Positions 2 to 36,724 of a stretch of 36,724 nt of DNA are shown one piece after another; the first letter of the stretch is position 1, and each line of letters starts with the position of its first letter. Below the pieces are notes generated by a model. It saw nothing but the letters and a program-made list of their open reading frames with translations. It did not search any database and was not told where the DNA came from. The position numbers were made by a program, and so were the translations under genes. The stretch comes from Candidatus Olsenella stercoravium (lineage in GTDB: Bacteria; Actinomycetota; Coriobacteriia; Coriobacteriales; Atopobiaceae), in assembly GCA_019116265.1 (NCBI GenBank), contig DXBZ01000167.1, forward strand, positions 1-36,724. The letters are read 5' to 3'.

Positions 2-403
2 GGACAGGGCCTGGAGGTGCTGGACATCCCGCAGGAGCTTCCGGCTGAGGCTCGCTGCGCCGTGGTGGAACGCGTGACGGGCCTGACGCCCGCCGACCGC
101 GGGCGCGTGCTCTCCACGGTGGCGCAGCTCAACTCCGACCCGGACCGCATCCTCGAGGGCGGGCGCACGAGCCCCGGCGAGCTCCGCAAGCTCATGCTTG
201 CGGAGGGCATCCTGCGCCACCCCGCGCTCATCGTCATGGACGAGCCCACCAACCACCTGGACCTGCACTCGACCGAGGCCCTCGAGCGCGCGCTCGCCGC
301 CTACCCCGGTGCGCTCGTGCTGGTGAGCCACGACCGGAGGTTCCTCGAGGCCTGCACCACGCGCACCTGGAAGGTCCGCGACGGCCACGTGACCGAGAAA
401 TGA
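2..403 (+). CDS. ABC-F family ATP-binding protein, C-terminal part (5' end outside window)
   Basis: LMLAEGILRHPALIVMDEPTNHLDLHSTEALERAL...LVLVSHDRRFLE: Walker B/DEPTNHLD and H-loop of ABC-F proteins; reading frame open to window edge. Confidence 0.9.
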   Translation, partial: GQGLEVLDIPQELPAEARCAVVERVTGLTPADRGRVLSTVAQLNSDPDRILEGGRTSPGELRKLMLAEGILRHPALIVMDEPTNHLDLHSTEALERALAAYPGALVLVSHDRRFLEACTTRTWKVRDGHVTEK

Positions 404-434
404 TACGAAGGGACAGTCCCTTCGTATCATTTCT
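396..434. terminator. Perfect 19-bp-arm inverted repeat (agaaatgatacgaagggac-a-gtcccttcgtatcatttct) between convergent genes, containing both stop codons
   Basis: Read directly; flanked by convergent CDS 2-403(+) and 427-1110(-). Confidence 0.85.
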
Positions 435-32396: not shown

Positions 32397-32429
32397 GATG
32401 AGTCAAAGGGACAGTCCCTTTGACTCATC
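32397..32429. terminator. Perfect 16-bp-arm inverted repeat gatgagtcaaagggac-a-gtccctttgactcatc
   Basis: Read directly; overlaps the stop codon of the S10 peptidase gene. Confidence 0.8.
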
Positions 32430-33918: not shown

Positions 33919-33972
33919 ACTGTCTCCTGACGTCGTGTTCTTGTCCACATGGTAGCGCTGCGGGAGGTCCGC

Positions 33973-34461
33973 ATGTACGGAAAAGCCGAGACGCTGGAGC
34001 TGCTCGACCGCGAGGGGATTGCCTACGAGCTCTACGAGCACGTGGCGGTCTACACCGTCGCGGAGGCCGTGGCCGCAGGCATCCCCCACCGCGAGCTCGG
34101 CGCCAAGAACCTCTTTCTGCGGGACGACAAGCACCGCGCGCACTACCTCGTCTGCCTTCCGGACGAGAAGAACGTCTCGCTGCGAGAGATCCAAGAGCGC
34201 CTGGGCTCGCGGCGACTCTCGTTTGCGAGCGCCCAGGACCTGCGCGCGATGCTCGGCCTGGTGCCGGGCGCCGTCACGCCACTCGGCGCGCTGAACGACA
34301 CCGAGCGGCACGTGGAGGTCGTGATTGACCAGACGCTCGTCGACGCCGGGCGCCTGACCGTTCACCCCTGCGACAACACTGCGACCGTCCTTATCGCCAC
34401 GTCGGACCTGATCGCGCTGCTGCGCGAGCGCGGCCACGACGTCCGCGTGGTTGACCTGTAG
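33973..34461 (+). CDS. YbaK/ProX-type aminoacyl-tRNA deacylase family protein
   Basis: MYGKAETLELLDREGIAYELYEHVAVYTVAEAVAAGIPHRELGAKNLFLRDDKHRAHYLVCLPDEKNVSLREIQERLGSRRLSFAS. Confidence 0.9.
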   Translation: MYGKAETLELLDREGIAYELYEHVAVYTVAEAVAAGIPHRELGAKNLFLRDDKHRAHYLVCLPDEKNVSLREIQERLGSRRLSFASAQDLRAMLGLVPGAVTPLGALNDTERHVEVVIDQTLVDAGRLTVHPCDNTATVLIATSDLIALLRERGHDVRVVDL

Positions 34462-34469
34462 CACCCCAT

Positions 34470-34609
34470 CAATTCGAGACACGGCGTGTCTCGAATTGTG
34501 CACACACTGCGCGCACTTTCTTGACGCATTGCGTCAAGAATCTTCAAGCCAAGGATTCGGCACACGGCGTGAGCCGAATCAGGATTGTGAACGCGTTGAG
34601 TTCACAATC
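34470..34609. repeat. Tandem array of five short hairpins sharing an ACRC-N3-GNGN apical module
   Basis: caattcgagacACGGCGTgtctcgaattg; ttcttgACGCattGCGTcaagaa; gattcggcACACggcGTGAgccgaatc; gattgtgaACGCgttGAGTtcacaatc; plus degenerate tgcACACactGCGCgca. Confidence 0.85.
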
Positions 34610-34917
34610 TAGGCAATCGCCTGCTCTGAGGCACGACGCTCTGCCAGCTCAAAGATGAACGGCGCGTTATTCCGGACAAAGACGTCGAGTTCTGCCAGCT
34701 CTTCACCCGAGAAACCTGTTACATCAAACCACCTATGAGCCGGCAACAGGCATCGCGCGGAATCGAAACCCATGTCAACGGGCCTCTCTACGGCAACCTC
34801 GAGCGTACCGTCCTCGCGAAGGTCGGAGTAGGCAACCTGGGTCTCATCGGCAAGTTGCACGTAGCTCCACATCACCTGAACCAGCCTCCTCAGTCTCCCT
34901 TCCACTAGTTTACCCAT
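34609..34917 (-). CDS. Hypothetical protein
   Basis: MGKLVEGRLRRLVQVMWSYVQLADETQVAYSDLREDGTLEVAVERPVDMGFDSARCLLPAHRWF...; family not identified. Confidence 0.7.
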   Translation of the reverse strand: MGKLVEGRLRRLVQVMWSYVQLADETQVAYSDLREDGTLEVAVERPVDMGFDSARCLLPAHRWFDVTGFSGEELAELDVFVRNNAPFIFELAERRASEQAIA

Positions 34918-34981: not shown

Positions 34982-36028
34982 TTACTCGTCTCGCTCCGCC
35001 CGAGCCTCAGCGATCGCACGGCGCGTGGGTTCGAGGGCGTCGGCCAGTTCCTCCTCGGTGGGCAGACACGTGACGTAGCTCGACGCGAAGAGTCCCTTGC
35101 CGTCGGCGAGCGCGGAGTACTTCGCCACCGTCCGGTCGGAGCTCGAGCAGAGGATGAGTCCGATGGTCGGGTTGTCGTCAGTGCCCGCGTACTTCTCGTT
35201 GAACAGACGGACATAGAAGTCCATCTGACCAACGTCCTTGGCGTTGAGCGGGCGCGTCTTGAGCTCAATGAGCACGTAGCACTTGAGCTTGATGTTGTAG
35301 AAGACGAGGTCAACGTAGTAGCTCGCCTGCTCGCCATCGAGCCGGTACTGGCGGCCAACAAAGGCAAAGCCGCGTCCCAGCTCCAGCATGAACTCCTGCA
35401 GCCGCGTCATGAGCGCCTGCTCGAGCTGGTGCTCATCAAAGTCCGTGCGACCGCCCAGGTCCAGGAAGTCCAGTACGTACGGGTCCTTGATGAAGTCGTC
35501 CGCTGTCGTCGCCGGCTCGGAACGTTGAATCTCAGAGCGAATGAGTTCGCGCTTCTCACCCTGCGAAGAGAGCAAACGCTCGCGGTAGAACGTTGCAATT
35601 TGGTGGTCGAGCTGACGAGAAGTCCAGTGCTCGTCTGCTGCAGCGTTCATGTAAAACTCGCGCTGCTCCTGATCAGGAATACGCATCAGCCTACGATAGT
35701 GCGTCCAGCTCAATTGTGCACGCAGTGCGTGCACTTTTGGAAACGCCAAATAGAACTGCTGCATCTGATAGAGGTTTCTCTGAGTGAACCCCTTCCCGTA
35801 CTCCGCGGTCAGCCTCTCTGCCAGGTACTGGACCAGATGCTTCCCATACTCCGCGCGCTCGCCCGTTGCCTCAACAATCTGGCGCCCGATCTCCCAGTAC
35901 GCCTCGACCATGGCGCTGTTGACGGCGCGCTCCACCTTGCTGCGCGCGGACTCCAACGTCTCACGAACGGATACGTAGACTCGCTCGTCGTTCTTCTCGT
36001 CAAACTGCTTGATGGACTTCTTGGCCAT
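34982..36028 (-). CDS. DUF1016 / YhcG-like PDDEXK nuclease-domain protein
   Basis: VNSAMVEAYWEIGRQIVEATGERAEYGKHLVQYLAERL...QLSWTHYRRLMRI...FVGRQYRLDGEQASYYVDLVFYNIKLKCYVLIELKTRPL. Confidence 0.92.
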   Translation of the reverse strand: MAKKSIKQFDEKNDERVYVSVRETLESARSKVERAVNSAMVEAYWEIGRQIVEATGERAEYGKHLVQYLAERLTAEYGKGFTQRNLYQMQQFYLAFPKVHALRAQLSWTHYRRLMRIPDQEQREFYMNAAADEHWTSRQLDHQIATFYRERLLSSQGEKRELIRSEIQRSEPATTADDFIKDPYVLDFLDLGGRTDFDEHQLEQALMTRLQEFMLELGRGFAFVGRQYRLDGEQASYYVDLVFYNIKLKCYVLIELKTRPLNAKDVGQMDFYVRLFNEKYAGTDDNPTIGLILCSSSDRTVAKYSALADGKGLFASSYVTCLPTEEELADALEPTRRAIAEARAERDE

Positions 36029-36263: not shown

Positions 36264-36724
36264 CTACTTGTAATGCCGCACGTCCTTCTCGAGGTGGCGG
36301 CGCTTCTCGATTGTGGGACCCAGGGCGTTGATCTCCGCGTAGCGCGGGCAGTCGCGGCTGTGGTCGTTGATGATGCCGCAGGCCTGGAGGTGCGAGTAGA
36401 CCGTCGTGGGGCCCAGGTACTTGAAGCCGCGCTTTCGCAGGTCGGCCGCCACGCGCGCCGAGAGGCCGTTGCTCACGGGAATCCACCCGTCGGCGTGCTT
36501 GTTGTAGAGGATCGTCTTGCCGTCCGAGAAGCCCCAGAGGTAGGCGTCGAAGCTGCCAAACTCCTCGCGCACGCGCTGAAAGCAGCGCGCGTTGCCCACA
36601 ATGGCCTCGACCTTGCGGCGGGAGCGGATCATCCCCGGTGTCTCCAGGATGCGCTCAACGTCGTCCGGGCCAAACGTCGCCACGGTATCATAGTCAAAGC
36701 CCGCAAAGCACGCGCGGAATACCT
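36264..36724 (-). CDS. tag: DNA-3-methyladenine glycosylase I (5' end outside window)
   Basis: FGPDDVERILETPGMIRSRRKVEAIVGNARCFQRVREEFGSFDAYLWGF...YLGPTTVYSHLQACGIINDHSRDCPRY; frame open to window edge. Confidence 0.92.
   Translation of the reverse strand, partial: VFRACFAGFDYDTVATFGPDDVERILETPGMIRSRRKVEAIVGNARCFQRVREEFGSFDAYLWGFSDGKTILYNKHADGWIPVSNGLSARVAADLRKRGFKYLGPTTVYSHLQACGIINDHSRDCPRYAEINALGPTIEKRRHLEKDVRHYK

What the first reader, a model, noticed from the sequence alone, without database searches (positions are those of the whole stretch)
34470..34609. Tandem hairpin array with shared ACRC-N3-GNGN apices and different, self-complementary basal stems
Seen: five consecutive palindromes in about 140 bp, aligned as GAG-ACAC-GGC-GTGT-CTC, TGC-ACAC-ACT-GCGC-GCA (degenerate), TTG-ACGC-ATT-GCGT-CAA, GGC-ACAC-GGC-GTGA-GCC, TGA-ACGC-GTT-GAGT-TCA. 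Basal stems (CAATTCG, TTC, GATTC, GATTG) are unrelated in sequence but each still pairs with its partner arm, so structure rather than sequence is conserved. Centres lie 22-38 bp apart, so this is not a simple tandem duplication. One terminator would suffice between these convergent genes; five is unusual. Inference: a REP/BIME-like array, a hot spot for a palindrome-generating or single-strand transposase activity, or a structured RNA or protein-binding array tied to the adjacent unknown gene and DUF1016 nuclease gene.
Basis: partly seen in the sequence, partly recalled or inferred. Interest (0 to 1): 0.72.

Follow-up and report, generated by a model that had tools for sequence, protein, structure and literature searches.

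The report
Stray copies of a nuclease-gene palindrome
Five mirror-image DNA motifs between two gut-bacterium genes turn out to be non-coding relatives of a palindrome that sits at one fixed position inside the neighbouring DUF1016/YhcG nuclease gene in most members of that family examined, E. coli included; its letters change freely but its symmetry is kept, which suggests a hidden DNA-level role for a widespread candidate defence gene.

Summary
In detail: four strong and one weak hairpin, more stable than every shuffle, in a Thermophilibacter/Olsenella-type genome. They are not REP/BIME and not a dispersed repeat. The same ordered array lies after the same tRNA-editing gene in many congeners, beside a DUF1016 (YhcG, PADLOC candidate PDC-S02) gene or its empty site. 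Each hairpin is a relative of a 29-nt (13+3+13) palindrome inside the DUF1016 coding sequence. A covariance model built only from DUF1016 genes finds, in the whole 1.84-Mb genome at E<=1, only two DUF1016 genes and this array. All four DUF1016 arm types that occupy this locus in the genus are in the array. The coding palindrome recurs at the same protein position in 79 of 86 distinct DUF1016 site regions from at least four phyla, with unrelated but Watson-Crick-matched arms. E. coli yhcG has three in tandem, and extragenic copies lie after yhcG and after gltD. The pattern points to symmetry kept at DNA level. How copies leave the gene, and what the nuclease does with them, is inferred, not shown. 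My best guess is that they are sites of the DUF1016 nuclease and mark breakpoints of gene turnover at its locus.

The parts
34470..34498 (.). Palindrome H1, CAATTCGAGACAC-GGC-GTGTCTCGAATTG, the full 29-nt DUF1016-type element
   Evidence: gene-only model R2, E=8e-7 in the window and 4e-5 genome-wide
34496..34519 (.). Palindrome H2 (degenerate), AATTGTGCACACACTGCGCGCACTTT; the asymmetric AATTG/CTTT ends match the gene's own element (CAATTGTGCAC...GTGCACTTTTGG)
   Evidence: two mismatches over the 19-nt core to the gene copy (L086)
34518..34540 (.). Palindrome H3, TTCTTGACGC-ATT-GCGTCAAGAA; same arms as the DUF1016 gene element of G024, G025 and G009
   Evidence: R2 E=9e-4 in the window
34554..34580 (.). 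Palindrome H4, GATTCGGCACAC-GGC-GTGAGCCGAATC; same arms as the DUF1016 gene element of G013, G014, G019 and G026
   Evidence: weak with R2 (E=0.28)
34583..34609 (.). Palindrome H5, GATTGTGAAC-GCGTTGA-GTTCACAATC; same arms as the DUF1016 gene element of G023 and G027; its last base touches the stop codon of the next gene
   Evidence: R2 E=0.03 in the window
35711..35739 (-). The coding palindrome inside the DUF1016 gene, CAAAAGTGCACGC-ACT-GCGTGCACAATTG, encoding P-K-V-H-A-L-R-A-Q-L just before the LSWTHY motif
   Evidence: E=1e-8
34982..36028 (-). DUF1016/YhcG gene (DUF1016_N + YhcG_C PD-(D/E)XK domain, 348 aa); PADLOC candidate defence family PDC-S02
33949..34461 (+). Left anchor of the hot spot: aminoacyl-tRNA editing domain gene (PF04073); the array starts 8 bp after its stop
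34609..34917 (-). Variable cargo gene of about 102 aa, no Pfam or NCBIfam match; in relatives it lies beside a DUF4160 gene (a toxin-antitoxin-like pair by inference only)
36264..36724 (-). Right anchor of the hot spot: 3-methyladenine DNA glycosylase I gene (cut by the window end)
   Evidence: ortholog in L180 hits PF03352

Best explanation
H1-H5 are extragenic, non-coding relatives of the palindrome that members of the DUF1016/YhcG PD-(D/E)XK nuclease family carry at one fixed place in their coding sequence. SHOWN: shared identity of the array with the gene palindromes; the fixed site; arms that differ freely but stay Watson-Crick symmetric; confinement of the array to the DUF1016 hot spot between a tRNA-editing gene and the tag gene. 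INFERRED: the palindrome is a DNA site (dyad or extruded hairpin/cruciform) that the DUF1016 protein itself binds or cuts, recognising mainly symmetry and the apex. Breaks at these sites make the locus a hot spot of gene gain, loss and allele exchange, and extragenic copies are left at the borders of exchanged DNA; the five-hairpin array is such an accumulated border, inherited by the genus and now mostly drifting. The gene tolerates the element because it encodes a loop between two helices.
For: Gene-only model R2 hits only two DUF1016 genes and the array in the 1.84-Mb genome at E<=1. All four arm types used by locus-resident DUF1016 genes of the genus are among the five array types (about 0.004 if five types were drawn at random from the 15 counted). 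Site palindrome scores >=8 in 79 of 86 distinct DUF1016 site regions; above all 40 synonymous recodings of the same peptide in 75; mean 11.1 against 4.7 for recodings and 6.1 for the best elsewhere in the gene. In 24 gene elements, 60 cells with changes on both sides, 0 of 500 shuffles reach this, sliding destroys it. In 28 elements, 335 of 364 pairs Watson-Crick, only 6 G.T. Extragenic copies beside DUF1016 elsewhere: after E. coli yhcG and after gltD, and between hsdS and DUF1016 in another family. Borders: K-12's post-gltD copy lies where strains with gltD next to yhcG have none; BL21's yhcG is cut at the end of palindrome 3; array copies lie on both sides of the DUF1016 module in G024. AlphaFold places the encoded peptide in a loop between two helices, local pLDDT about 86-90.
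Against: No binding, cutting or transcription data. Within the array most changes are one-sided, and the array persists in species with no DUF1016 gene at the locus, so it is not under strong selection tied to a resident nuclease. Array spacing is not in frame and copies end at the palindrome, so the copying route is unknown. A few DUF1016 genes have a weak or no palindrome (7 of 86 below 8). The IS1 insertion seen in one E. coli strain shows that not every break near the palindromes needs DUF1016. The genome is a fragmented bin (89% complete).
Confidence: 0.58

Rival explanations
1. Purely mutational: replication template-switching across quasi-palindromes keeps correcting one arm from the other, so symmetry is maintained without a function; the array is a chance collection of such repeats.
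For: The same process was proposed for coding palindromes of Nematomorpha mitochondria (PMC6649704). It would explain Watson-Crick-only arms and arm changes at amino-acid-changing positions.
Against: It does not explain why the palindrome recurs at the homologous codon of one family in several phyla while the rest of the gene lacks it, nor why extragenic copies lie beside the same gene. Array copies show mostly uncorrected one-sided changes.
Confidence: 0.17
2. RNA-level role: the hairpins act in transcripts, as bidirectional terminators or mRNA 3' ends in the gap and as an mRNA hairpin (pausing, autoregulation) in the gene.
For: The gap lies between convergent genes and both strands fold far better than shuffles. 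The E. coli copy also lies in a convergent gap.
Against: G.U pairs are nearly absent among gene elements, whereas RNA helices usually drift through them. Only the weak H2 has a T-rich tail, and 3 terminator-like sites against 1.5 expected is not a signal. No Rfam match. Does not explain identity with the gene element.
Confidence: 0.12
3. Archive: the array is a store of silent variable segments used to rewrite the DUF1016 loop, in the manner of silent antigen cassettes.
For: The array holds all four locus-resident types plus a fifth, and the gene is hypervariable around the site.
Against: The variable block of the gene is about 25-30 codons and the array carries only the 25-29-nt palindrome without flanks; units are out of frame with each other; no gene-array identity suggesting recent conversion.
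Confidence: 0.08
4. REP/BIME array spread by a RAYT transposase.
For: RAYT-like Y1 transposases are in 28 of 31 congeneric genomes.
Against: H1-H5 are not dispersed. The dispersed palindrome that flanks RAYT genes here is a different one.
Confidence: 0.02

Closest known systems
REP/BIME/REPIN elements with RAYT (TnpA-REP)
   Same: Short extragenic palindromes, often between convergent genes, associated with a gene for a DNA-processing enzyme; some occur inside ORFs (PMC3733652).
   Different: H1-H5 are confined to one locus, conserve symmetry more than sequence, relate to a palindrome inside the coding sequence of a PD-(D/E)XK nuclease, and no tyrosine transposase is involved.
Rickettsia and Wolbachia protein-coding palindromic elements (RPE)
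   Same: Palindromic DNA read in frame inside proteins and also found outside genes.
   Different: RPEs are about 100-150 nt, sequence-conserved and inserted in many unrelated genes; here a 25-39-nt element holds one fixed site of one family in several phyla with arms of free sequence.
[quoted passage not shown]
   Same: Palindromic DNA coding for tandem repeat peptides; E. coli yhcG likewise has three tandem units.
   Different: PARCELs are 25-residue repeats defined by an HMM in ORFs without assigned function; these are about 9-residue units in a loop of a nuclease.
Nematomorpha mitochondrial coding palindromes (PMC6649704)
   Same: Perfect inverted repeats inside coding sequence whose arms change together.
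   Different: Those are long (up to 284 bp), scattered in mitochondrial genes of one animal phylum; here one homologous site in bacterial nuclease genes, plus extragenic copies.

Membership tests
DUF1016-gene palindrome (this report's family) | Matches a profile made only from DUF1016 coding palindromes | tested here: met
   R2: H1 and H3 clear, H5 marginal (0.03), H4 weak (0.28), H2 not found in the window search; genome-wide H1 and H3 only
DUF1016-gene palindrome (this report's family) | Arm types shared with DUF1016 genes of the same locus | tested here: met
   H2, H3, H4, H5 equal the four types of locus-resident genes; H1-like arms in a gene of another genus (L123)
REP/BIME with RAYT | Many dispersed copies in the genome | tested here: not met
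   one locus plus DUF1016 genes
REP/BIME with RAYT | Copies flank a RAYT gene | tested here: not met
   RAYT genes lie elsewhere; AAGGGGNCTGTCCCCTT, not H1-H5, lies beside RAYT genes in G003 and G017
REP/BIME with RAYT | GTAG or CGTC tag at one end of the palindrome (PMC3733652) | tested here: not met
   H1-H5 as read have no such end tag (CGTC occurs only within the apex)
Rickettsia-type palindromic element | About 100-150-nt sequence-conserved element inserted in unrelated genes | tested here: not met
   25-39 nt, one fixed site, free arm sequence
PARCEL | 25-residue tandem repeat | tested here: not met
   About 9-residue units; PARCEL HMM itself not run
Intrinsic terminators | GC-rich hairpin followed by a T run | tested here: not met
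   Only weak H2 has a T-rich tail; count not above shuffles
Known structured RNA | Match to an Rfam family | tested here: not met
   No match at gathering threshold in the window
Nuclease-substrate pair | DUF1016 protein binds or cuts the palindrome | not testable with these tools
   No solved DUF1016 structure found; PD-(D/E)XK domain by Pfam

The most novel reading that the evidence does not exclude
DUF1016/YhcG genes carry, inside their own coding sequence, the palindromic DNA site of the nuclease they encode. Because recognition rests on symmetry and apex, arms can change freely as long as both change, and the enzyme's action on its own gene and on stray copies makes the locus a self-made exchange hot spot: an enzyme-site pair in which the site is hidden in the gene. 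Coding palindromes at fixed sites of RhuM-family genes suggest that this is a wider class.
Probability: 0.3. Interest if true: 0.95.

Novelty: new variant of a known kind. Interest (0 to 1): 0.84.

Why it matters
DUF1016/YhcG is widespread (4,442 of 5,426 complete E. coli genomes hold at least part of the gene), is listed as a candidate anti-phage defence gene (PDC-S02), and I found no solved structure and no paper tying it to palindromes. A palindrome kept by symmetry at one codon position across phyla is a strong, cheap handle on what it does: it names a candidate DNA substrate that can be tested in E. coli K-12 at once. It would also add a case where DNA-level symmetry shapes a protein sequence, and offers a marker for exchange borders around defence-like genes.

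Tried and rejected
REP/BIME with RAYT: tested and rejected for H1-H5. Dispersed mobile repeat: rejected, one locus. Rfam RNA: no match. Intrinsic terminators: no support. Relic of tandem in-frame palindromes like those of E. coli yhcG: spacing 22/23/38/29 is out of frame, so not supported. Attachment or integron-like recombination site: no recombinase tied to the array; kept only as part of the hot-spot inference. Apex motif alone: not enriched. In one search my H3 register was off, so its H3 rows are not used. Model R1 mixes array and gene copies and is circular for the array; R2 was made to avoid this. Scans of viral contigs failed twice.

Full report
OBSERVATION. The five palindromes are present as described: H1, H3 and H4 are strong 3-nt-loop palindromes, H5 has ten perfect pairs around a 7-nt loop, H2 is degenerate. 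Both strands fold far better than shuffles (z -7.1 and -7.9). The apex motif by itself is common in this GC-rich window; the long, different, self-pairing arms are what is unusual. No Rfam family matches.

WHERE IT IS. The window belongs to an Atopobiaceae genome, nearest to Thermophilibacter/Olsenella records. The array starts 8 bp after the stop of a tRNA-editing-domain gene and ends at the stop of a small unnamed gene, followed by a DUF1016/YhcG gene and then the tag DNA glycosylase gene. In 16 of 31 congeneric genomes all or part of the array is found, and where the tRNA-editing gene's downstream region was read the array is in the same order after that gene. On the far side the content varies: unnamed/DUF4160 pair, aldo-keto reductase, GNAT, SWIM protein, DUF1016, or nothing before tag (the reductase and GNAT names rest on my reading of the sequence). 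So this is a hot spot between two fixed anchors. In G024 (L181) array copies lie on both sides of the DUF1016 module.

WHAT IT IS. Inside the DUF1016 gene of the window, at 35711-35739, is a palindrome with the arms of H2, down to H2's asymmetric AATTG/CTTT ends. Other species carry at the same codon the arms of H3 (G024, G025, G009), H4 (G013, G014, G019, G026) or H5 (G023, G027). Around the site the gene is hypervariable (mean identity 0.60 in the worst 30-nt window, about 0.9 over the nuclease domain), in four classes: PKVH, ILD, IRH, IVN. The array thus holds all four locus-resident types plus H1, whose arms resemble those of a gene in another genus (L123).

NON-CIRCULAR TEST. A model built only from DUF1016 coding elements (A4, R2) was run on the whole 1.84-Mb genome. 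At E<=1 it returns the palindromes of two DUF1016 genes and the array, nothing else (150 of 494 first-look candidates were scored, so weak copies may be missed). In the window alone its eight hits are the gene copy, H1, H3, H5 and H4. An earlier mixed model (R1) gave the same picture across 31 genomes, plus some REP-like palindromes and other DUF1016 genes.

FAMILY-WIDE. Of 86 distinct DUF1016 site regions, 79 hold a palindrome scoring 8 or more, 63 score 10 or more. In 75 it exceeds all 40 synonymous recodings of the same peptide; the mean is 11.1, against 4.7 for recodings and 6.1 for the best elsewhere in the gene (the fetched set is not a random sample). Strong examples come from Actinomycetota, Bacillota (Vescimonas), Bacteroidota (Dyadobacter, two genes) and Pseudomonadota (E. 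coli, Burkholderia); a cyanobacterium has one of score 8, and Clostridium tagluense and an acidobacterium have weak ones. Arms are unrelated, for example AATTTTCCAGAC/GTCTGGAAAATT and CAATTGTCGTGAC/GTCACGACAATTG. In the aligned 29-mers the four middle arm positions use up to all four pair types; 60 cells change on both sides, no shuffle reaches this and sliding abolishes it. Of 364 pairs in 28 elements 335 are Watson-Crick and 6 G.T. An RNA helix would be expected to pass through G.U; this points to DNA.

E. COLI. Another allele (ECNB21-M121) has two different ones with near-identical downstream sequence, another strain has one, and BL21's gene ends at the edge of the third. Extragenic copies lie in the convergent yhcG-nanQ gap (3368970-3368994) and just after gltD (3360632-3360656), the latter with the arms of yhcG element 1 as found in most strains read here. 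Strains with gltD directly next to yhcG lack the post-gltD copy, so in MG1655 it marks the border of the gltF-yhcF block. A third lineage (L246, another family) has a copy with the arms of its own gene between hsdS and DUF1016, and a related palindrome in the 3' end of hsdS.

MECHANISM (inferred). AlphaFold puts the encoded peptide (residues 97-106) in a loop between helices 83-95 and 108-114, in a region of pLDDT about 86-90, although the whole model is modest (68.7, pTM 0.45). A loop is a tolerant place for a DNA-level element. Foldseek's best matches are mostly nucleases of the PD-(D/E)XK type, with only one below E=0.001; there is no solved DUF1016 chain. I therefore propose that the palindrome is a DNA site of the DUF1016 nuclease and that its action promotes exchange at the locus, leaving palindromes at borders. 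The array itself is now mostly drifting: changes are mainly one-sided and it persists without a local DUF1016 gene. Binding, cutting and the copying route are not shown.

COMPARISON. The dispersed REP of this genus is AAGGGGNCTGTCCCCTT, up to 68 exact matches per genome (both strands) with none of the reversed control, and beside RAYT genes in G003 and G017; it is separate from H1-H5. Coding palindromes are known from Rickettsia, Mollicutes (PARCELs) and Nematomorpha, but I found no report of one at a fixed site of DUF1016. Searches of the open-access library for DUF1016 or yhcG with palindromes found nothing on this point; subscription papers were not searched. PADLOC lists the family as candidate defence gene PDC-S02.

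NOVELTY. I call it a new variant of a known kind (palindromic elements tied to a DNA enzyme gene, and coding palindromes), with a real chance that it is a new category.

Noticed in passing
L101:2818-2846, L109:139-167, L111:3347-3375, L257, L262, L263, L269-L271, L273, L275: Genes of the Virulence_RhuM family (PF13310) also carry a perfect coding palindrome near one site before the YNLD motif, with different arms (AGTTGTCAAGG/CCTTGACAACT, AGTTGTCGCAA/TTGCGACAACT, AACTTGTTCCA/TGGAACAAGTT): a second family with coding palindromes.
   Followed up: partly
window 396-434 and 32397-32429; L007:3647-3674; genus-wide: A dispersed palindrome family (AAGGGGNCTGTCCCCTT and the related AAGGGACAGTCCCTT) with up to 68 matches per genome; copies lie beside RAYT-type transposase genes (G003:C11, G017:C1). 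A genuine REP family.
   Followed up: partly
L246:2037-2063 and 2109-2134: The 3' end of an hsdS gene encodes a DUF1016-like palindrome, and the hsdS-DUF1016 gap holds a copy of the gene's own palindrome just before the ribosome-binding site.
   Followed up: partly
L243:2508-2532 (E. coli BL21 yhcG): yhcG of BL21 is truncated at the end of its third palindrome; many E. coli genomes share a break at the same base (nt 406).
   Followed up: partly
L196:1767-1799, L197:1965-1997, L198:1978-2011: Long nested palindromes, GGGGACAG outside and CAAATTGGGACAC inside, in three congeneric genomes; look like composite REP structures.
   Followed up: no
L180:6496-7267 (G014): The DUF1016 gene next to the array site is broken (N- and C-terminal parts in separate frames), and the array there is reduced to H5 plus a degenerate H4.
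   Followed up: no
L195:2009-2037 (G007:C12): A palindrome of the same 13+3+13 geometry (CGATTGAGTTGGC-ACT-GTCAGCTCAATCG, one mismatch) with no DUF1016 gene within the fetched stretch.
   Followed up: no
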